Positions 9,126-28,800 of a stretch of DNA of 64,000 bases are shown here, piece after piece. The position numbers and the translations under genes were made by a program. Within the stretch, counting starts at the first letter, position 1, and the number at the start of each line of letters is the position of its first letter. Under the pieces are notes generated by a model. The model was not told the origin of the DNA and ran no database searches. It saw nothing but the letters and a program-made list of their open reading frames with translations. The stretch is from Sporosarcina koreensis (GTDB taxonomy: Bacteria > Bacillota > Bacilli > Bacillales_A > Planococcaceae), in assembly GCF_001531445.1 (NCBI RefSeq), contig NZ_LQYA01000007.1, positions 53,275 to 117,274 of the forward strand. Direction: 5' to 3'.

Positions 9126-10862
9126 TTAGTTGACGGGCATTGCTACCCAATGTCCTTTTGAAATCTCCACAAACTCCGATTGTTGTAATCGGTATTTATC
9201 TGTTTCATGTTGCTCATCCATCATGACTCGCTTTTTCTTTGCCTCAACCTTTGGATCAGGAATCGGGATTGCAGCTAACAGCGACTTAGTATATGGGTGC
9301 TGTGGATTTGAATAAAGCTCTTCGCTTTCCGCCAGTTCAACTATTTTGCCGGCATACATAACCGCCACTCGGTCACTAATATGCTTTACCATGGACAAAT
9401 CATGGGCGATAAACAAATAAGTCAAGCCCAATCGGTGTTGAAGATCTTCTAACAAGTCTACAACTTGCGACTGGATGGAAACGTCAAGCGCAGATAAAGG
9501 CTCATCACACACAATGAACTTAGGTTCCACTGCGAGTGCGCGTGCAATACCTATCCGTTGCCGCTGACCACCCGAGAATTCGTGAGGATATCGCATTGCA
9601 TGCGATGGCAAGAGTCCTACCATATCTAAAAGCTCTTCAACTCTTTTCCTACGTTGTGCTTTACTGCCGCTCAGCCCGTGTATATCGAGGGCCTGACCGA
9701 TAATATCCAACACTTTAAACCGCGGATTCAGTGATGAATAAGGATCTTGGAAAATGAGTTGCATATGGCGTCTCATTGTTTTCATTTCACTTTTAGACAA
9801 ACGATTGATCGCCATCCCTTGGTAGAGTACATCGCCATCCGTCGGTTCATTCAATCGTAAGATCGCTCTACCTGTCGTTGACTTTCCAGACCCTGACTCT
9901 CCCACAAGGCCAAGTGTCTCGCCAGGTTGAATATGGAAACTAATATTGTCAACGGCCTTCAACAACTTTCCCTTTCCTAAATCAAAATGTTGTTTAAGTG
10001 ACTTTACTTCAATAAGAGGCGTATTGCTGGTATCTGTCATGATCAATGGCGTGCGTTTAGGCTTCTTCTTCTCATGTAATTTTGGAAGTGAATTTAGTAG
10101 TTTCAGTGTATACGGGTGCTTCGGACTCTCGAAAATCTCCTCAGTTGTTCCAGTCTCAACAATTTCTCCGCTCTTCATGACAACAACACGGTCGCACATT
10201 CCAGCGACTACACCCAAATCATGGGTGATCAGAATAATGGATGTGCCGAAACGCTTTTGCATATCCTTCATCAAATTTAAAATTTGTGCTTGTATTGTTA
10301 CGTCCAATGCTGTTGTAGGTTCATCCGCGATTAACAAAGTCGGACGGCAAGCAAGTGCAATTGCAATCATGACGCGTTGCAGCATGCCACCTGAAAACTC
10401 ATGAGGGAATTGATTATATCGAGTCTCCACATCCCGGATTCCCACAAGTTTCAAGATTTCGAGCACTTGCACTTTAGCTTCTTTCTTTGACAGTTTCTGA
10501 TGTTTAATTAAACTTTCAGCAATTTGTTTTCCTATTCTTATTGTTGGGTTCAGTGAGGTCATCGGGTCTTGGAAGATCATACTTATATCGCGGCCGCGTA
10601 TGCTTTCCATTTCCTTCTCTGTTTTAGCACCCAAATTTTCACCAAGAAAATTAATGTCCCCGTTTTTCATATGTGAAGGCGGTGAGGGTAATATCCGCAT
10701 TATACTTCGAGCCGTGACACTTTTACCGCTTCCCGACTCTCCTACGATTCCTAATGTTTCACCCTTTTTAACTTCAAAACTAACGCCTCGAACTGCGTCG
10801 AATTCCTCATCTCTGGTCTGAAAAGAGACGTGCAGATCCTTCACTGTTAATATTATTTCCAA
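9126..10862 (-). CDS. Dual ABC transporter ATPase, fused DppD-DppF type
   Basis: Two complete nucleotide-binding domains in one 578-residue chain. Each has Walker A GESGSGKS, signature LSGG-like motifs (FSGGMLQRV and FSGGQRQRI) and Walker B (LLIADEP, FIVCDEP). The order is that of OppD then OppF. Such fusions (GsiA/YejF type) energise peptide, glutathione or nickel importers with permeases like those encoded divergently from 10979. A TTG start at 10862 with GGTGG upstream is chosen; an ATG at 10922 would add 20 residues of non-family sequence. It is divergently transcribed from the permease genes across about 116 bases and followed by the hypothetical gene. Confidence 0.92.
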   Translation of the reverse strand: MEIILTVKDLHVSFQTRDEEFDAVRGVSFEVKKGETLGIVGESGSGKSVTARSIMRILPSPPSHMKNGDINFLGENLGAKTEKEMESIRGRDISMIFQDPMTSLNPTIRIGKQIAESLIKHQKLSKKEAKVQVLEILKLVGIRDVETRYNQFPHEFSGGMLQRVMIAIALACRPTLLIADEPTTALDVTIQAQILNLMKDMQKRFGTSIILITHDLGVVAGMCDRVVVMKSGEIVETGTTEEIFESPKHPYTLKLLNSLPKLHEKKKPKRTPLIMTDTSNTPLIEVKSLKQHFDLGKGKLLKAVDNISFHIQPGETLGLVGESGSGKSTTGRAILRLNEPTDGDVLYQGMAINRLSKSEMKTMRRHMQLIFQDPYSSLNPRFKVLDIIGQALDIHGLSGSKAQRRKRVEELLDMVGLLPSHAMRYPHEFSGGQRQRIGIARALAVEPKFIVCDEPLSALDVSIQSQVVDLLEDLQHRLGLTYLFIAHDLSMVKHISDRVAVMYAGKIVELAESEELYSNPQHPYTKSLLAAIPIPDPKVEAKKKRVMMDEQHETDKYRLQQSEFVEISKGHWVAMPVN

Positions 10863-10915
10863 TTCGATTCCACCGCCATTTATTTTAATCTTAATAGTGT
10901 TTTTAAAAATATAAC

Positions 10916-10944
10916 TTGTCACTAACTTCAGATTATACTATTAT
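10916..10944 (+). promoter_or_regulatory. Probable promoter of the permease-binding protein operon
   Basis: TTGTCA (10916-10921), 17-base spacer, TATTAT (10939-10944), placed 35 bases before the first permease start and in the divergent intergenic region. Confidence 0.5.
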
Positions 10945-10978: not shown

Positions 10979-12424
10979 ATGGAGGTAAAAGCATCTACCA
11001 GAGATGGTAATCGGTTGTTATGCATAATGCAGAATTCTTACGACAAGATGCATCAAAGAAATTCCTATAATTGTATAATAATGATTTTAGGACTTCCGGT
11101 TCACTTATTCCTGTTTATGTTTTATGTATGGAGAAAGAGGGACAATACATACTCTTCTTTACTTGAGGATAGTAAAAGGTCTCTTGCGGATGAAGGTTTT
11201 AAAGAGAAATTACGGCTTGAATTTAGGAACCAGTTGATTCGAAAATGTGAATTTTTTGGACAGCATGTCAACGAATCAGAACTGGAAAAACAGGTGGAAA
11301 ATTTAGCGGAAGAACGATTTCTAAAAATAGCACGGGAGAAGACGGATAAAAGGTTGCTAAAAGAAGGGAAAACGAAATCGAGTTACTCGAATTTCTTCCG
11401 TTCGTTACTTTCACAACCGCTTTTCTTTTTCTTGACATTACTTCCAGGCTTGCTGATGTATCTATTTATCTTCATGTATAGTAATCCATTTGTTAAGTAT
11501 GTATTCGAACGACTGGTAATCAGTGTTTTCGTCGTCATTGGTGTTGTAATCCTTGTGTTTTCTATTTTGTATATATCACCATTTGAACCTGCCGCCAATA
11601 TAATTGGTGAAACGGCGACGCCAGAACAAATTTCAGCTTTCAACCGATTACATGGCCTTGATTTACCTTACCTTGCGCAATTATGGGAGGCGATCAAAGG
11701 GATTGTCACGTTTGATTTGGGTGCATCCTACGCAGGCAATGAAGATGTCATTACGAGCATTGCGAAAAAGTTCCCGATTACGTTGATCATCTCATTGTTA
11801 TCGTTAGTCATGGCTGTACTGATCGCAGTACCTATCGGAATTATTTCGTCCACAAAACCAAATTCTTTTTTTGATTATACATTTATGTTTATTGCCTTAC
11901 TCGGTTTGTCGATCCCCAACTTTTGGCAAGGGTTAATATTCATTTTGAACTTTTCGATTAAATTACAGTGGTTGCCTGCTACTTACAATCCACAAAATTG
12001 GTTATCCGTGATCATGCCGATTATAGTCCTCGGAACAGCATTAACAGCATCCGTCAGTAGAATGACTCGCTCATCCATGCTGGAGATTATTAATGAAGAC
12101 TATATCATCACGGCAAAAGCGAAAGGTTTAAATAAACGGCAAGTGCTGTGGAAGCATGCCGTTGGTAATGCAATGATTCCTGTCATTACTGTCATCGGCC
12201 TGCTATTCGGTGGGATGCTCGGTGGTGCTGCTGTAACAGAGAAGGTTTTCAATATTAGTGGTATCGGCAGCTATATTGTAGATAAGCAGTTTATTCCTGA
12301 TATTCCAAGTATTTTGGGCGGGGTTGTCTACGTGGCTATCACCATTTCACTAATCAATGTAATTATTGACATTTTGTATGCATACCTTGATCCGAGAATT
12401 CGTTCGAAGATTAAACAATACTAA
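10979..12424 (+). CDS. ABC transporter permease, OppB type, with long N-terminal extension
   Basis: The 481-residue protein has an ordinary OppB-like core from about residue 172 (VKYVFERLVISVFVV.., and the EAA loop EDYIITAKAKGLNKRQVLWKHA). Before it lie about 170 extra residues: a membrane segment near 34-50, a charged helical stretch about 52-140, then a second membrane segment about 146-167. OppB proteins normally start at the core and have about 310 residues. The extension is in frame from an ATG at 10979 with GAGGGAG upstream, so it looks translated. The protein should form the membrane channel with the next gene's product. Confidence 0.87.
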   Translation: MEVKASTRDGNRLLCIMQNSYDKMHQRNSYNCIIMILGLPVHLFLFMFYVWRKRDNTYSSLLEDSKRSLADEGFKEKLRLEFRNQLIRKCEFFGQHVNESELEKQVENLAEERFLKIAREKTDKRLLKEGKTKSSYSNFFRSLLSQPLFFFLTLLPGLLMYLFIFMYSNPFVKYVFERLVISVFVVIGVVILVFSILYISPFEPAANIIGETATPEQISAFNRLHGLDLPYLAQLWEAIKGIVTFDLGASYAGNEDVITSIAKKFPITLIISLLSLVMAVLIAVPIGIISSTKPNSFFDYTFMFIALLGLSIPNFWQGLIFILNFSIKLQWLPATYNPQNWLSVIMPIIVLGTALTASVSRMTRSSMLEIINEDYIITAKAKGLNKRQVLWKHAVGNAMIPVITVIGLLFGGMLGGAAVTEKVFNISGIGSYIVDKQFIPDIPSILGGVVYVAITISLINVIIDILYAYLDPRIRSKIKQY

Positions 12425-12437
12425 AGTAGGTGCAATG

Positions 12438-13979
12438 ATGACACAAATAGAAATGGAGAATAAGCAGGCTTTAAAGCCGAAGTCACAAATGAAGTCTGAT
12501 CATAAGAAAATATTGAAGCTGTCGCCTGAATATACACAATCCAGTTTTGCTTGGATAACGTCTCTAGCACTTACGATTGTTTTTTTGCTCAACTGCTTCG
12601 ATTTTTCAACAAAGACCATTAAGCCATTCGCATTTAGTGCATTTCTGGCATACAGCCTTTTCACTTTGATTCAGATCGGGCTTACAGTAGCCATACGAAA
12701 AGATATTCTAACGAGCGGAACCATAAGAAAAACGACTAGAAAACTAGGTTTCATACAACTATTAGGCGTCTTCACAGGGAATGTCTTTGTTGTTTCGTTT
12801 GCATTCAATGTAATTAAAGAGAAAAAGACTCCGGAGTATATGTTTGCGGTCTATATGGTGATGACCCAATTTTTTATTATTGCAATATCCTCTTTGAATT
12901 TGTTTAAACCGTATGTTTCGAATACATTTTTACTAGCCATGACCCTATTAGTAGCTATTTTAGTGTTCCAGCTAGCGGCAACGTTATTAGTCGCCAAGCA
13001 CGTAACGAATCAAAGCACTAAGCGTTGGATGACATGGATTGCGATTCCGCTCATTCTAACAGCGGCAACCGGAAACCTGTTTGCGCTCATACTAGGATAC
13101 GGCTTGCTAATGAAGGGAAGAAGTAATGATTTATCGAGGATCGATAAATGGGATACGATGTGGGGGAAAATAACAAGAAATACTACGGCGACATTAGGGT
13201 TGTTCTTTATCATATTTATGTTCTCCATATCAGTTTGCAGCAACTTCACTTTCGATTACAGTATGGCGGTCGAAAACAACTATAGTGCGCTTCTTCAACC
13301 GCCAAGCATCAGCTATCCGCTTGGAACAGATGATTTCGGAAGGGATTTATTCACCAGAATTATTTTTGGAGCAAGAATATCCTTAGTCGTCGGTTTCATT
13401 TCGACGATCATTCCAGCAGTTGTTGGTGGAGCACTTGGTGCAATTGCAGGTTATTATGGCCATCGCACAGATAATATCGTCATGCGTTTACTCGATGTGC
13501 TATATGCGGTACCAGGAATATTGTTAGCGATTGCCATCATCGCTGCTTTTGGAGCGAATATTACGAACTTGATCATCGCATTAAGTGTTGGTTCCATTCC
13601 AACCTACGCCAGAACGATGAGGGCGAACGTCCTTATGGTTTCAAATTACCAGTTTGTTGAATCTGCCCGTGCGCTCGGTTCAAGCGACCTTTCAATTATC
13701 TTCAGGCAGGTTATACCGAATTCCCTAGCCCCGATGATCGTAAAGGCTACGTTAACAATTGGCGGCGCGGTCATAGCCACAAGCAGTTTAAGCTATCTTG
13801 GACTTGGTGTAGAACCCCATATTCCAGAATGGGGGAATATATTGAAGTTAGGAAGTACGTATCTTGAAACGCATTCTTATTTAGCGATTTATCCCGGGCT
13901 TGCCATTATAGCACTCGTGTTGTCCTTCAACTTCTTAGGTGACGGGCTTCGTGATGCAATGGATCCAAAGCTGGATTAA
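12438..13979 (+). CDS. ABC transporter permease, OppC type, with multi-spanning N-terminal extension
   Basis: The protein has 513 residues. The conserved OppC part begins near residue 245 and shows the PLGTDDFGRDLF motif (294-305) and the EAA loop (VESARALGSSDLSIIFRQVIPN). Residues 1-240 contain about six hydrophobic segments not present in standard OppC proteins of about 300 residues. The ATG at 12438 is chosen (AGG 7 bases upstream); the neighbouring ATG at 12435 is equally possible. The gene follows the OppB-type gene by 13 bases. Both permeases having extensions suggests a specialised subfamily in which the extensions may pack together. Confidence 0.87.
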   Translation: MTQIEMENKQALKPKSQMKSDHKKILKLSPEYTQSSFAWITSLALTIVFLLNCFDFSTKTIKPFAFSAFLAYSLFTLIQIGLTVAIRKDILTSGTIRKTTRKLGFIQLLGVFTGNVFVVSFAFNVIKEKKTPEYMFAVYMVMTQFFIIAISSLNLFKPYVSNTFLLAMTLLVAILVFQLAATLLVAKHVTNQSTKRWMTWIAIPLILTAATGNLFALILGYGLLMKGRSNDLSRIDKWDTMWGKITRNTTATLGLFFIIFMFSISVCSNFTFDYSMAVENNYSALLQPPSISYPLGTDDFGRDLFTRIIFGARISLVVGFISTIIPAVVGGALGAIAGYYGHRTDNIVMRLLDVLYAVPGILLAIAIIAAFGANITNLIIALSVGSIPTYARTMRANVLMVSNYQFVESARALGSSDLSIIFRQVIPNSLAPMIVKATLTIGGAVIATSSLSYLGLGVEPHIPEWGNILKLGSTYLETHSYLAIYPGLAIIALVLSFNFLGDGLRDAMDPKLD

Positions 13980-14004: not shown

Positions 14005-15822
14005 ATGTTGAAAAGGTTTTTGGTGCCGATTGTATTAGTAGTTGTTCTTGTTATGTCGGGATGTGTCAAAACAAAATCAGATGTTGAAGAAGGTGCGAAG
14101 CCCGGGAACGACGGGAAAAAAGATCTATCCAAAGTGCAAGTGGAACTTCTTGGGATGAGTAGTGGAGAGTCCGATTTAAACATTGTCCGTGACCAACTAG
14201 TGAAAAACGGATTTGATGTGAAACTTAATTTGCAACCGGATTATGGTAGTTTCAAAGCACAACAAGATGCTGGCAACTATGATATCGCATTGTCGGGATG
14301 GACGACTGTTACAGGGAACCCTGATTATGCAGTTCGTTCACTCTTTAAAACAGGCGGAGATTACAGCATCATGTCCGATTCCGAAATCGACAGTCTTATT
14401 GACCAAGCAGGTACTGAGACGCCTGATGAATACCAAGCTACTTATAAGAAATTTGAGGAACGTCTAGTATTTGACAAAGCATATATTGTTCCGCTTTATA
14501 CTTCGTATAAAACACAAGCAGTGAACAAGGATATCTTGAATTTAGATTCAGTTCGACTCTCTAAATCGCGTTCCCTTCCATGGGAAGAAATCGAATTCAA
14601 TGATGCATCCAAAAATGCAACGGATCCTTTGGTTTTGTCACAATCGATGTCTACATTAACGTCACTTGATCCCATTAAAGGGAATGACGGATCGATTAAT
14701 ATCATTAATACAAATATGCATGTACGTTTAGTGAATCTGACAGATGATGATCAAATCACCTCTGAAGGCTCCCTATCGCTTAACCATAGTATCGCAGAAG
14801 GTAATTCAGAGTATTACTTCTTGCTGAGGGATGATATCAATTTTGCCAAAGTAGACAGTAAAAAAGCTGTCGACTCTGGCGAACGGGTAGGGGCAGATGA
14901 CGTTATCTTTACGTTAAATCGCGCTAAAGACAAAGACTCTGTACCTGATCACCGCACATACACTCTTCATGAACATATTAAAGATATTGAAGTCATTACA
15001 GATTTAGGTTCACTTGAAACGATCAAGCAATCCGGAAGTGACGAAACGGTTAAAGCGGCACTGGAAAAAGGGCTTGGCAATACAATCAATTCTCTCGTGG
15101 ATGATAAAACGAAAGCAAATAGTGAAGAAGGAATGTACCAAGTCGTAAAAATAACAACAACAGAGCCGTTCCCACAAGTGTTAAATTATTTGGCGCACCA
15201 ATCTGCGGGTATCGTTTCAAAGAAGCAAGTGGAAAGCATCAATACATTCGATGTCGCATCATTTGATGTCAATAAAGACATTCCTTATGGCGATCAAAAT
15301 ACTGTAACAGAAGGCAGCCAGTACAATAATACGTTATACACGAGCGGCCCTTACATTTTGATTTCTAAAAATGACTACGAAGCGGAGTTCCAAAAGAACC
15401 CGGGGTATATGACAGGAACGAAACACGAGCCGAAGATTTCAAATGTGACAATGCGTTTTATAAAAGACCCGGACAGCACACTTGCAGCACTTAGAAATAA
15501 TGAAATCCATTTATTTTACGCTGTACCCGAAACTAAATACGATGTGGTAGAAAGCGATAGTAAACTGTCATTACAAAGCATTGAGAGTAATGCAGTCAGC
15601 TATTTGCTCTTCAATACGAAGAACCGAGAAGTCTCAGAAAGTGAAGATCTCCGAAAAGCAATTCTATACACAATTAATCAAGACGACTTCATCAGCTTTT
15701 ACAAAGGAAATAAAACCAAAGCGTTCTCAACTTTAAGCCCAATCGTCAAAACAGGTAATGAACTTGTGGCTGATCCAGCAAAAGCAAAAGAATTTTTGAA
15801 CAAGTATCAGGAAACTAAATAA
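14005..15822 (+). CDS. Substrate-binding lipoprotein, SBP family 5, circularly permuted
   Basis: This 605-residue lipoprotein (lipobox VMSGC, Cys20) is the extracytoplasmic receptor of the transporter. The order of its segments is reversed. Residues 41-180 match the C-terminal part of family-5 binding proteins (VQVELLG.., NYDIALSGWTTVTGNPDY, DSLIDQAGTE.., IVPLYTSY). Residues about 208-605 match the normal N-terminal and middle part (DPLVLSQSMSTLTSLDP, GADDVIFTLNRAKD, TSGPYILI, DLRKAILYTIN) and end at DPAKAKEFLNKYQ, the helix that in normal proteins leads into the segment found here at residues 41-180. The start ATG has AGGAGGG upstream. A convergent terminator follows. Ligand unknown; peptide or metal chelate is likely. 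Confidence 0.88.
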   Translation: MLKRFLVPIVLVVVLVMSGCVKTKSDVEEGAKPGNDGKKDLSKVQVELLGMSSGESDLNIVRDQLVKNGFDVKLNLQPDYGSFKAQQDAGNYDIALSGWTTVTGNPDYAVRSLFKTGGDYSIMSDSEIDSLIDQAGTETPDEYQATYKKFEERLVFDKAYIVPLYTSYKTQAVNKDILNLDSVRLSKSRSLPWEEIEFNDASKNATDPLVLSQSMSTLTSLDPIKGNDGSINIINTNMHVRLVNLTDDDQITSEGSLSLNHSIAEGNSEYYFLLRDDINFAKVDSKKAVDSGERVGADDVIFTLNRAKDKDSVPDHRTYTLHEHIKDIEVITDLGSLETIKQSGSDETVKAALEKGLGNTINSLVDDKTKANSEEGMYQVVKITTTEPFPQVLNYLAHQSAGIVSKKQVESINTFDVASFDVNKDIPYGDQNTVTEGSQYNNTLYTSGPYILISKNDYEAEFQKNPGYMTGTKHEPKISNVTMRFIKDPDSTLAALRNNEIHLFYAVPETKYDVVESDSKLSLQSIESNAVSYLLFNTKNREVSESEDLRKAILYTINQDDFISFYKGNKTKAFSTLSPIVKTGNELVADPAKAKEFLNKYQETK

Positions 15823-15917: not shown

Positions 15918-17774
15918 TTATTGAAATAGTAAGCTGTCTGTAGTTGTTGGGATTATGTCGGATAAGGATTCAGACTCCGGTATTGTAATGTTGATTAGAT
16001 TGCTGATTGCAGCTGGATTGTCGTCACCCTTTCTTCTGAATTCGACAAATAGTTCATACTCCGTATTCGCTTGCAGTGTCGTTAAGGTTGCGCTTGTGTT
16101 TTCGAAATCAATGTCTTCGGATGTTTGCCAAACTGGTTCGTAATTTGCAAAAACACGGATATCATCATATTCTTCAGGGTTTTCCCATGATAAAATGACC
16201 GTTGTGCCTGATACTTCGACTGTGATGTTAACTAAAGGTAGTTTTTCGAGATTCTGGATAGCCATTAAGATGGCAGCTGTTTTCTCGATTTTCTCTGCAT
16301 CTGTTTCTTCTGGCATCTCCATCGCTTCATAAAGTGCCTCCTGGCTATCCATTGTGTAGAAGTACCAGTAGTCTGGCGGTATGCTATCGAATGCGGCGGC
16401 TAGTTTTTCGTCAATGGTCTGGCTAGGTGGCTCCGGATTTGGCTCCGGTTCTGGTTCCGGATCTGGCTTTGGACCTGGCTCCGGGTCTGGTGTCGGAGTT
16501 GGTTCCGGCCTTGTGACTGGACTCGAATCAGGCTCAGGTGTTGGGACAGGGGTTGGTTTAGATTGCCCTTCCGCTCTTTTTGCTGCTTCGTCCTGTCGTT
16601 GTCTTTCCGCCTCTTGTTTCCGTAAAGCTTCAGTGAATGCGTTACGTTCACTCTCGCTGATTTGAGCACTAAATGCTTCCTCTGCACGACGCTTGGCTTC
16701 TTCTGCCGCTTTTCTCTGCTGTTCAATTTGTAGTTCTCGTTTCTCCTGCAATCTTTGCAGAAGCTGCTGTTCTCTATTTTGCTGTTCCTCTCTCTTTTTT
16801 TGCATTTCTTCCGCTTGCTGCTTGCGCAATTGTTCCAAGCGATTACGCATTTCTATCTCAGCCGTGCTTAATTGCCATTCCTCAACAATTTCATTCAGCC
16901 TAAGCAATTCTTCGGGAATGGGGCTACCTGATTCCACCGCTTTACTTGCAATGAGCGAAAGCAAACCTTTCAACCTTTTTTCCATTTCACGCAACTCGTC
17001 GGCCGTAGCTGCTGAATCGGGAGAGGGTACATTGCTTTCCATATTTTGTTTCAATTCTTCGACGAGTCGCTCATTTTCCCGATCGATCTTCTCTTTATTC
17101 TTAAGCAACTGTTCCATAATATGTGAGTTTCGGATGGCATCCGATCCGTTTAAATTGGCCGGTTCTATATAGTCATCTAGATTTGGAATGCCAGGTTGCA
17201 TATGAAGTTGTTGCGCTGGTAAGATCGGAACGGGCAAATTATTTGTTCCTTCATTATTTGACGCATTCACAATGCCCGATGCGACAAAAATAGATGTGTT
17301 TGAGTTGGCAGGGTCAACTTGGACGAAAAAATTCGTCCCTTTCGCAGCAATATGCTGTCCAGGCGTATTGACTTCGAAAATATCCCCCGTTTTTCTGTCC
17401 GGATTGGCACTGGCCAGCACGAGGCCTGACCAAACAGTAAGTCTCGTGACCGCATTTCCGGACTCTTTGCGCAGATCGGCCAGGACGAGTCTTGCATTCT
17501 CAGCGATGGTCAATTCGTCTTGCGTATCCTCTATCCGTAGGCTGATGCTGGCAAAAGCATCAGTCGCCACAAGGTCGCCTTCCTGCAATGTCATCTCTGG
17601 ATAAGCCCGCACCGACAAATGTCCGCCTGCTTTTGTTATCCAAACGGTGCCCCTCACATCGCCAATTGTTGCAGACCGATTAGTTGCAGCTTTGACAGGT
17701 TGTCCTACTCCCGACAGTAAAAGGATGACTGCTAATAAGCTAGCAAACCATTTTGTGAAACAGTTTGTTTTCAT
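15918..17774 (-). CDS. Secreted FecR-domain protein with coiled coil and proline-rich spacer
   Basis: The 618-residue protein has a signal peptide (residues 1-30) and a FecR-like domain (about 36-185; GDVRGTVWITKAGG, EGDLVATDAFASISLRI, NTPGQHIAAKGTNFFV). A long charged coiled coil rich in Q, E, K and R covers about 215-400. A PEP/PDP-type proline-glutamate spacer follows (about 405-450), then a fibronectin III-like domain (about 520-605; LSWENPEEYDDI, ANTEYELFVEF). FecR domains of this type occur in envelope proteins unrelated to iron signalling. The start ATG 17774 overlaps the stop of the SLH/NHL gene by 4 bases, so translation is coupled. It probably acts outside the cell as a surface or matrix component. 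Confidence 0.82.
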   Translation of the reverse strand: MKTNCFTKWFASLLAVILLLSGVGQPVKAATNRSATIGDVRGTVWITKAGGHLSVRAYPEMTLQEGDLVATDAFASISLRIEDTQDELTIAENARLVLADLRKESGNAVTRLTVWSGLVLASANPDRKTGDIFEVNTPGQHIAAKGTNFFVQVDPANSNTSIFVASGIVNASNNEGTNNLPVPILPAQQLHMQPGIPNLDDYIEPANLNGSDAIRNSHIMEQLLKNKEKIDRENERLVEELKQNMESNVPSPDSAATADELREMEKRLKGLLSLIASKAVESGSPIPEELLRLNEIVEEWQLSTAEIEMRNRLEQLRKQQAEEMQKKREEQQNREQQLLQRLQEKRELQIEQQRKAAEEAKRRAEEAFSAQISESERNAFTEALRKQEAERQRQDEAAKRAEGQSKPTPVPTPEPDSSPVTRPEPTPTPDPEPGPKPDPEPEPEPNPEPPSQTIDEKLAAAFDSIPPDYWYFYTMDSQEALYEAMEMPEETDAEKIEKTAAILMAIQNLEKLPLVNITVEVSGTTVILSWENPEEYDDIRVFANYEPVWQTSEDIDFENTSATLTTLQANTEYELFVEFRRKGDDNPAAISNLINITIPESESLSDIIPTTTDSLLFQ

Positions 17775-27231: not shown

Positions 27232-28800
27232 ATGAAAAAGAGAATGTTTGCTTCGATTTTTTTCAGTCTATTGGTAGCTATTTTTGTTGCGGGCTGTTCG
27301 GATTCCGGTGCCTCAAGCTCAGGAGGGGATGGTGAGAATGTTCTTATTGTAAGGGCAACAGGTGATCCGATGTCCTTTAACCCGGATACAACAGCTGATG
27401 ATAATGCATATGCGATTGTGCAGAACTTGTTTAACCGGCTTGTGAAGCTAGACGCTTCTAAACAAGTTATCCCGGATCTTGCGAAGGATTGGGAGGTTAG
27501 TGAGGATGGATTGGCAATTACCTTCTATTTAAATGAAAACGCCAAATGGCATGACGGTGAGCCGGTCACGAGTGAAGATGTAAAATATACATTCGAAACG
27601 ATCCAAGCGAACAAAACGTATTACTTCAGCTCTAGATTAGAAATTGTTGATTCGATTGAAACGCCGGATGATCATACGGTTGTCTTTCATATGAAGTCCC
27701 CGGATGTGTCATTCATAGCGGATCTCGGTTGGTATGCAACGTTTATCCTGCCTGAACATGTTTTTAACACGGATGTGTCATGGGAAGATAATGCTGCATC
27801 GAAGGAACCGATTGGGTCGGGGCCATTCAAGTTTGGAGAGTTTAAGCAAGGTGTGAACGTAACTTTGGTGCCGAACGAAGATTATCATGAAGGGAAACCG
27901 AAGATTGATAAATTAGTGTTCTCCATTATTCCAGATGAGCAAACAGCTATTCAAGCATTGATCAATGGAGAAATCGATGTGTTTGAAAATGTCCCTTCAT
28001 CCAGCGTAGAGCAATTAAAGAGCAGAGATAATGTTCGACTGGAGCTTAATGAATACCCATCACCTGCAAGAATTATTTTCAACCTGACAAAAGAAGAAGT
28101 GGCGGATGTCAACGTCAGACAAGCAATTGCAACAGCTATCGATAAGGAAGAAATATCGAAAAAAGTGTATAGCGGCATTCAGAAGCCTGAATATAGCATG
28201 TACCCTTCTTTGATTGACTGGGCGGCGAATACGGAAGATACCTCACCTGAATTCAATATTGAAAAGGCGGAGCAAATCCTTATAGATGCAGGTTATGAAA
28301 AGGATGCAAACGGATTTTACGTTTCAGGAATTCCATTGGAAGTATTCGAAGGCAGCGGTTATCCCGACATGGCTAATCTTATGAAAGCGACATTGGCAAA
28401 GGCGGGAATCGGCATAGATATTAAAGTGAGCGAATTTAATGCATGGAACCAAAAGATAACTGTGGATAAAAACTTTGTACTGGAATTGCAAGGCGGATTT
28501 ATGGGGCCAGACCCTGCTGCTTTGGCAAAAAGATATGGCACTGGAGTAGGCAGCAACTATGGAGCATATAGCAATTCTAAATTTGATGAATTGACGAAAA
28601 AAGCGGCTTCCACGGGTGACCAAGAATTAAGAGCTCAATACTATAAAGAAGCTCAGGCGATCTTAGCTGAAGACTTGCCATTCATCCCGATCGTTACATT
28701 TGCAGGATACGATGCGAATAATAGCTCGTTCGTCAACTTGCCAATTGATGGAGCTGGTAAATGGGGATGGGCAGAGTATACGTTTACAGAACGTAAATAA
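27232..28800 (+). CDS. Peptide-type ABC transporter substrate-binding lipoprotein, SBP family 5
   Basis: This 522-residue lipoprotein (lipobox FVAGC, Cys22) has the normal segment order of family 5: SFNPDTTADDNAYAIVQNLFNRL near the N-terminus, then WHDGEPVTSEDVKYTFE, GSGPFKFGEF, VRQAIATAIDKEEI and NIEKAEQILIDAGY, then the C-terminal part (NLMKATLAKAGIGIDIKV, GPDPAALAKRYG, FDELTKKAAST, LPFIPIV). It serves as an internal reference that the protein at 14005-15822 has these blocks in permuted order. It captures the substrate for the permeases encoded upstream. Residues suggest an organic or peptide ligand, not a specific one. Confidence 0.93.
   Translation: MKKRMFASIFFSLLVAIFVAGCSDSGASSSGGDGENVLIVRATGDPMSFNPDTTADDNAYAIVQNLFNRLVKLDASKQVIPDLAKDWEVSEDGLAITFYLNENAKWHDGEPVTSEDVKYTFETIQANKTYYFSSRLEIVDSIETPDDHTVVFHMKSPDVSFIADLGWYATFILPEHVFNTDVSWEDNAASKEPIGSGPFKFGEFKQGVNVTLVPNEDYHEGKPKIDKLVFSIIPDEQTAIQALINGEIDVFENVPSSSVEQLKSRDNVRLELNEYPSPARIIFNLTKEEVADVNVRQAIATAIDKEEISKKVYSGIQKPEYSMYPSLIDWAANTEDTSPEFNIEKAEQILIDAGYEKDANGFYVSGIPLEVFEGSGYPDMANLMKATLAKAGIGIDIKVSEFNAWNQKITVDKNFVLELQGGFMGPDPAALAKRYGTGVGSNYGAYSNSKFDELTKKAASTGDQELRAQYYKEAQAILAEDLPFIPIVTFAGYDANNSSFVNLPIDGAGKWGWAEYTFTERK

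What the first reader, a model, noticed from the sequence alone, without database searches (positions are those of the whole stretch)
14005..15822. Circularly permuted family-5 substrate-binding lipoprotein
Blocks that lie at the C-terminus of normal family-5 binding proteins (VQVELLG, NYDIALSGWT, DSLIDQA, IVPLYTS) are at residues 41-180, straight after the lipobox. The normal N-terminal blocks follow, and the protein stops at the AKAKEFLNKY helix, exactly where the missing segment should begin. The ordinary protein at 27232-28800 shows the usual order. No frameshift or duplication is needed. The new N-terminus would place the lipid anchor on a different side of the binding cleft and could change the docking geometry to the extended permeases.
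Basis: partly seen in the sequence, partly recalled or inferred. Interest (0 to 1): 0.88.

Follow-up and report, generated by a model that had tools for sequence, protein, structure and literature searches.

The report
Naturally rewired nutrient-catching surface protein
This bacterial surface protein, which likely catches glutathione-like peptides for a membrane importer, carries the usual last third of its family at the front; two other protein families are cut in the same loop and likely arose separately, and the change is predicted to keep the normal two-lobed shape while moving the membrane anchor to the other lobe.

Summary
Confirmed. The 605-aa lipoprotein at 14005-15822 (CP1) is a circularly permuted family-5 (cluster C) substrate-binding protein. 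Against a profile of 41 ordinary relatives it scores 133.6 bits as written and 199.3 when rotated to start at residue 201, then covering nearly the whole profile. In 79 of 80 fetched loci it sits in one module with a divergent double ATPase and two permeases. Following it led further: a second permuted family (CP2, Thermaerobacter and others) nests among ordinary-order sisters 48-60% identical; a third (CP3) is 86-90% identical to an ordinary Dethiobacter protein; a fourth (CP4) is cut elsewhere. CP1-CP3 are cut in the same loop. The one natural precedent found in print is TpMglB-2, of another fold class. Gene order and a 40-41% identical relative beside a ggt gene point to the GisABCD type, so glutathione uptake is the likely job. 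Predicted structures support one compact fold. Ligand, docking and the effect of the moved lipid anchor are untested; that CP1 arose apart from CP2 is probable, not certain.

The parts
14005..15822 (+). circularly permuted family-5 substrate-binding lipoprotein (CP1), 605 aa
13993..13999 (+). ribosome-binding site AGGAGGG
   Evidence: sequence
14005..14064 (+). signal peptide and lipobox, residues 1-20 (Cys20)
   Evidence: Cys20 invariant in the 34 sequences aligned
14134..14601 (+). moved block, residues 44-199, equal to the C-terminal third of ordinary family-5 proteins
14602..15819 (+). residues 200-605, equal to the N-terminal two thirds of ordinary proteins; ends at the helix before the break
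12366..13979 (+). permease C: Opp/Dpp-type core from about residue 261 with a ~240-residue membrane extension in front (start codon as listed; a later ATG at 12435 is likely)
10979..12424 (+). permease B: core from about residue 172 with a ~170-residue extension
9126..10922 (-). divergent ATPase with two fused nucleotide-binding domains (GsiA-like)
27232..28800 (+). ordinary-order family-5 protein used as internal control

Best explanation
The gene encodes a circularly permuted family-5 substrate-binding lipoprotein that likely captures glutathione or a similar small peptide for the ABC importer encoded beside it and is predicted to fold into the usual two lobes. Shown: the chain starts in a loop of the C-lobe (DppA 368-373), runs through the rest of that lobe and the ordinary C-terminus straight into the ordinary N-terminus, and stops at the helix before the break. 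Shown: it belongs to a conserved module of divergent double ATPase, permease B, permease C and this protein. Predicted: one compact two-lobed body, so that capture, docking on the permeases and ATP-driven release would follow the Dpp scheme. Inferred: because signal peptide and lipobox stay at the front of the gene, the lipid anchor now holds the C-lobe, at a point away from the cleft, in place of the N-lobe. Inferred origin: tandem duplication of an ordinary gene, fusion across the old C- and N-termini, and loss of the first copy's N-part and the last copy's C-part. Likely ligand: glutathione or its disulfide, by kinship to the staphylococcal GisABCD importer.
For: Permuted order. Fold: models of P0002 (pLDDT 82.2, pTM 0.80) and of the CP2 protein P0123 (93.5, 0.88), whose residues 207-605 and 188-517 match the first 320-345 or so residues of solved relatives. 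Conservation: the 120 homologues listed (of 1436 found) are 72% identical or more over 96-100% of the query; all four genes in one order in 79 of 80 loci, the 80th having only 828 bases before the match. Permutation as a real event: the five ordinary-order sisters of CP2 that I checked, CP2 nested among them; CP3 against Dethiobacter, 89.8% and 86.2% for the two swapped parts with the signal peptide (82%) left in place. Function: GisABCD has gisA divergent from gisBCD-ggt, nine predicted membrane passes in GisB and GisC and a lipoprotein GisD (PMC10355420, passages); the staphylococcal-type relative in G424 (40-41% identical over its length) is followed by a ggt gene; 13 of 13 genomes with the module have a ggt gene somewhere, against 85 of 138 without it (Fisher p 0.004, not corrected for kinship).
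Against: No solved structure; the structure aligner is order-bound, so packing of the moved block is supported by sequence and pTM, not by superposition. ggt is next to the module only in G424 among the 13 genomes, not in the window, and ggt is common in the class (98 of 151). The bond between the G424/L199 protein and GisD rests on organism, gene order and neighbours; I had no accession for GisD. In G424 the permease C frame is only 393 aa, so its extension is much shorter than here. Nickel-type and glutathione-type curated models match similarly weakly (61.3 and 50.1 bits, far below cut-off). No ligand residue was identified.
Confidence: 0.8

Rival explanations
1. Two separate units: an independent N-terminal domain fused to a family-5 protein that has lost its C-terminal third.
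For: Pfam sees two stretches rather than one; the structure aligner placed only residues from about 182 on.
Against: The front block matches the missing third, not some other domain; in ordinary-order sisters of CP2 and CP3 the same block sits at the end; residues 537-605 would lack the rest of their lobe without it (inference); pTM 0.80 and 0.88.
Confidence: 0.03
2. One ancient permutation gave all the permuted families, with later returns to the ordinary order.
For: CP1, CP2 and CP3 are cut in the same loop; with fewer ordinary relatives the joint clade CP1+CP2 was not rejected (AU p 0.074).
Against: With the CP2 sisters added the joint clade is rejected (p 0.008; p 0.027 with more divergent CP1 members); CP1+CP3 p 0.0007 and CP3+CP4 p 0.0009; CP3 is 86-90% identical to an ordinary protein; CP4 has a different cut. 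CP1 is a long branch, so its place is the least sure; CP1+CP2 together with the ordinary sisters is not rejected (p 0.49). CP2 against CP3 was judged by the tree alone.
Confidence: 0.12
3. The importer carries another ligand: a metal chelate, an opine or an ordinary oligopeptide.
For: Best curated matches are nickel-type and glutathione-type at low score; ggt is not beside the module in the window; the window's genome has two copies of the binding protein, which could differ in ligand.
Against: The DppA residues that hold both ends of a dipeptide (R383, D436) are absent (they are absent from most ordinary proteins too, R383 being kept in 3 of 44), as is the partner R42 of the permease scoop; the nearest characterised system by architecture imports glutathione.
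Confidence: 0.4
4. Assembly artefact or decaying gene.
For: None found for the window's gene; the CP3 gene lies at the start of its contig.
Against: Conserved full length in many genera, including a complete chromosome (L077); binding protein better conserved than its permeases (median of best segments 73.1% against 61.1% and 63.1%); CP3 has an identical copy on a different contig in another data set, though perhaps from the same organism.
Confidence: 0.01

Closest known systems
TpMglB-2 (Tp0684), 'Type Ic / cluster Bc' binding proteins (PMC4990184, passages read)
   Same: Natural circular permutation of an ABC-importer binding lipoprotein, found in treponemes and Gram-positives; two-lobed fold and ligand closure kept.
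   Different: Cluster B sugar-binding fold; the first three strands of the N-lobe move to the end. Here the fold class is family 5 (cluster C) and the cut is in the C-lobe.
GisABCD glutathione importer of Staphylococcus aureus (PMC10355420 and PMC12510641, passages read)
   Same: Divergent ATPase, two permeases with extra membrane passes, lipoprotein last; a staphylococcal-type relative is 40-41% identical over its whole length and permuted in the same way.
   Different: ggt follows gisD there and not here; the staphylococcal-type permease C is shorter. The held main text of neither paper contains 'permut'.
DppA/DppABCDF of E. coli (PMC12136057, passages read)
   Same: Homologous binding protein, permeases and ATPases.
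   Different: Ordinary order; dipeptide-holding R383 and D436 and scoop R42 not kept in CP1; permeases not lengthened.
GsiB-type glutathione binding proteins
   Same: CP3 and CP4 arise inside a family several of whose members are named glutathione ABC transporter binding proteins by their sources; the GsiB/YliB structure 1uqw ranks first for CP2, with others within 1 Z unit.
   Different: E. coli GsiB (1uqw) has the ordinary order; the names are annotations, not tests.

Membership tests
SBP_bac_5 / family-5 (cluster C) binding proteins | Pfam PF00496 match above the curated cut-off | tested here: met
   137.1 bits against a cut-off of 32.4
SBP_bac_5 / family-5 (cluster C) binding proteins | two-lobed fold of the family | tested here: inconclusive
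   Model pTM 0.80; residues 207-605 superpose on DppA 1-342, but the moved block could not be superposed by an order-bound aligner
SBP_bac_5 / family-5 (cluster C) binding proteins | ordinary N-to-C order of the blocks | tested here: not met
Type Ic / cluster Bc (TpMglB-2) | cluster B sugar-binding fold, break in the N-lobe | tested here: not met
   Only PF00496 matched in Pfam; break in the C-lobe
GisABCD-type importer | ATPase gene divergent from two permeases and a binding lipoprotein | tested here: met
   79 of 80 loci
GisABCD-type importer | permeases with extra membrane passes (nine predicted in GisB and GisC) | tested here: met
   481 and 537 aa, 9 and 11 hydrophobic windows by a simple hydropathy count, no dedicated predictor used
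GisABCD-type importer | binding protein related over its whole length to GisD | tested here: inconclusive
   40-41% identity to a staphylococcal-type protein that sits in the gis gene order; GisD itself not held under its own accession
gisABCD-ggt locus | ggt directly downstream | tested here: not met
   Downstream gene is a FecR/fn3 protein on the other strand; ggt lies elsewhere in the genome
GisABCD-type importer | imports glutathione and glutathione disulfide | not testable with these tools
   needs binding or uptake assays
DppA-type dipeptide binding proteins | Arg383 and Asp436 (precursor numbering) that hold the dipeptide ends | tested here: not met
   gap and Val in the three CP1 proteins aligned; gap and Ala in the four CP2 proteins aligned

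The most novel reading that the evidence does not exclude
One surface loop in the C-lobe of family-5 binding proteins is a natural permutation hot spot: nature has cut and re-joined these proteins there at least three times, plus once at the hinge, each time moving the membrane tether (or signal peptide) from the N-lobe to the C-lobe while keeping a working importer, and the glutathione-binding protein GisD of Staphylococcus aureus is one of them.
Probability: 0.65. Interest if true: 0.85.

Novelty: new variant of a known kind. Interest (0 to 1): 0.74.

Why it matters
Here are several natural circular permutations in one protein family, one of them (CP3) with an ordinary-order relative still 86-90% identical, so that the steps of a permutation may be read almost fresh. 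They offer a natural test of whether it matters which lobe of a binding protein is tied to the membrane, and ready-made permutation sites for biosensor design. The swapped order may also be why curated models score this protein so low. If the GisD link holds, an already studied nutrient importer has an unnoticed rewired receptor.

Tried and rejected
Looked for other conserved neighbours that would name the ligand: beyond the four genes no gene cluster reached more than 18 of 80 loci. Looked for a domain in the permease extensions: no Pfam match above cut-off, weak hits only. Single origin of CP1 and CP2: not rejected in the first tree, rejected once ordinary sisters were added. Close ordinary-order sister of CP1: none seen in 398 phylum genomes at E 1e-10, where besides permuted genes only three weak partial matches of 27-32% appeared, nor in 151 class genomes at E 1e-30. 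In some searches at most three candidates per genome were scored, at most eight, so the counts of permuted genes are lower bounds and the absences are weak. CP4 in genomes: none in 398; it is known here only from 13 of the 119 proteins listed after P0243. The PF00496 scan of 61 genomes was cut by the output at E about 1e-79; within the rows shown the only matches ending near profile 280 were three CP2 genes, so it is no census. One further CP2-like hit (L174, G205) is cut by its contig end and was not counted. VIA rows list only chains with the N-terminal two thirds aligned; absence of other folds proves nothing. Paper searches for a permuted family-5 or cluster C protein (of which 67 and 80 listed only part of what they found) and for GisD showed no title or abstract start reporting one; the library lacks most subscription journals, and supplementary files were not searched.

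Full report
The observation. The frame 14005-15822 is one uninterrupted gene for a 605-residue lipoprotein with a good ribosome site and a lipobox. Its only Pfam family at E 0.001 is SBP_bac_5, in two stretches; in the genome-wide scan profile positions 276-366 lie upstream of positions 11-282 in the same frame. Among PDB sequences the best match, 5u4o, aligns in two swapped pieces. I then built a profile from 41 ordinary family-5 proteins of seven genomes, leaving three out as controls, and scored rotations in steps of five residues of five permuted proteins and the three controls. P0002 goes from 133.6 bits (profile 26-338 of 506) to 199.3 bits (35-490) when it is made to start at residue 201; the four other permuted proteins behave alike; two controls are best unrotated and the third is 0.6 bits better starting six residues earlier. 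This is a circular permutation at sequence level.

A conserved module. The 120 homologues listed, of 1436 found, are 72% identical or more over 96-100% of the query; they include near-identical copies of the window's own. A scan of one genome per species found 287 stretches that encode a relative; of the 80 loci kept, 79 have ATPase (-), permease B (+), permease C (+) and the binding protein (+) in that order, and the 80th (L012) has only 828 bases before the match. By best segment the binding protein is better conserved (median 73.1% to the window's) than permease B (61.1%) and C (63.1%), less than the ATPase (77.9%). No other neighbour is shared by more than 18 of 80 loci. The permease C extension and this binding protein were found in the same 13 of 151 genomes of the class, weakly so for the extension in G424. 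The window's genome holds a second copy, 67% identical, next to a second permease C.

More permuted families. The phylum sample of 398 genomes gave proteins collinear with P0002 at about 23% identity in four genomes of one genus; two of these match named Thermaerobacter records. Used as a query, one of them (P0123) found a large family: the 120 best hits all align over 98-100% of the query in one piece at 57% identity or more. Of the 398 genomes, 24 carry such a collinear gene (L150-L173), a lower bound because at most three candidates per genome were scored. Further hits of about 49-60% covered only the second part; the five that I checked (L175-L179) are ordinary-order sisters, with the two parts swapped at 56-60% and 48-57%. 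In trees CP2 lies inside these sisters: CP2 plus all four sisters used 100/100 in both trees, CP2 plus three of them, without L177, 100/97 and 99/96, CP2 alone 92/78 and 99/98 (in one search the bootstrap had not settled). So the ordinary order came first. One more collinear hit, G370 at 30% identity, is a third family, CP3. Its protein, held also as P0243, is 89.8% and 86.2% identical, in swapped parts, to an ordinary Dethiobacter alkaliphilus protein, and its first 33 residues are 82% identical to the same signal peptide. Of the 119 other hits of that search, 103 are ordinary, 3 partial and 13 permuted with another cut (CP4, e.g. P0252, which begins just after the first hinge strand). On E. 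coli DppA (precursor numbering) CP1, CP2 and CP3 are all cut between about 368 and 373, CP4 between 298 and about 303. Likelihood tests reject joint clades CP1+CP2 (p 0.008 and 0.027), CP1+CP3 (0.0007) and CP3+CP4 (0.0009); before the sisters were added CP1+CP2 was not rejected (0.074), and CP1+CP2+sisters is not rejected (0.49). CP1 sits on a long branch, so I call three independent events firm (CP2, CP3, CP4; CP2 against the others by the tree alone) and the fourth, CP1, probable.

How it likely works. The importer is an Opp/Dpp-type system: binding protein, two permeases, fused ATPase. In DppABCDF the permease scoop enters the cleft and E41-R42 touch DppA R383 and D436, which hold the dipeptide ends (PMC12136057, passages). 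CP1 lacks both residues, as do most of the ordinary proteins aligned (R383 is kept in 3 of 44), and its permease B lacks R42 while keeping E41 in the 14 rows aligned, a sample of the 76 long homologues. An ordinary dipeptide held in the DppA way is therefore unlikely. The nearest characterised system is GisABCD: gisA divergent from gisBCD-ggt, nine predicted passes in GisB and GisC, a lipoprotein GisD, and the authors' conclusions that GisABCD is an importer and that GisABCD-Ggt is required for use of glutathione disulfide (PMC10355420, passages); a later paper that used a gisD mutant finds growth on glutathione disulfide solely dependent on Gis (PMC12510641, passages). Genome G424 carries the module at 40-49% identity with a ggt gene next, though its permease C frame is only 393 aa. 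An S. aureus record has the same order and its binding-protein start is in permuted order; G424 and that record are 78% identical in DNA over 2.8 kb. That these are gis genes is inferred from organism, order and neighbours. If right, mutants in print already show that a permuted binding protein of this kind works. All 13 module genomes have a ggt gene somewhere, against 85 of 138 others, a weak point because kinship is not corrected for and ggt is adjacent only in G424.

The anchor. The break lies at the start of the strand that leads, about ten residues later, to the position of R383 at the cleft; the start of that strand is therefore the end away from the cleft (inferred). Lipobox and signal peptide stay at the front, so the tether moves from the N-lobe to the C-lobe. 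Whether this changes docking is unknown. CP3 stands beside permeases of ordinary length and in the two CP2 loci only the permease cores match, so lengthened permeases do not seem to be needed for a permuted protein; and some CP2 proteins have signal peptides without a lipobox Cys in the alignment (e.g. P0130, P0178), so a lipid tether is not the reason for the permutation in general.

Known or new. A natural permuted binding protein is in print for cluster B (TpMglB-2). The searches listed under Tried and rejected showed none for family 5. Hence: new variant of a known kind, with a recurrence that I have not seen described.

Noticed in passing
window 10979-11488 and 12366-13145: N-terminal membrane extensions of permease B (~170 aa) and C (~240 aa), without Pfam match above cut-off; in a class sample the C extension was found only in genomes that also have the permuted binding protein (13 and 13 of 151).
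   Followed up: partly
G000 contig C185 1280-3079 (L082): Second copy of the permuted binding protein (67% identical) behind its own permease C, in the window's own genome.
   Followed up: no
P0252, P0259, P0260, P0262, P0264, P0268, P0272, P0279, P0287, P0290-P0293: Family-5 proteins, mostly from metagenomic sources, permuted at a second site right after the first hinge strand, so that the C-lobe comes first.
   Followed up: partly
L180 (G370 contig 8, 2-1543): Apparently very recent permutation, 86-90% identical to an ordinary Dethiobacter protein; the gene lies at the contig start, so a duplicated remnant upstream would be missed.
   Followed up: partly
L199 (NZ_CP077929.1): S. aureus plasmid record holds an inverted duplication of the importer region that cuts the binding-protein gene; looks like an assembly hairpin.
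   Followed up: no
L026 and L043: Arthrobacter and 'Bacillus subtilis' records carry the binding protein at 72% identity to the window's; contamination or a wrong species label is possible.
   Followed up: no
window 15918-17774 (-): Neighbouring gene for a FecR/fn3 protein with a proline-rich repeat; best NCBIfam matches are spirochaete lipoprotein models far below cut-off.
   Followed up: no
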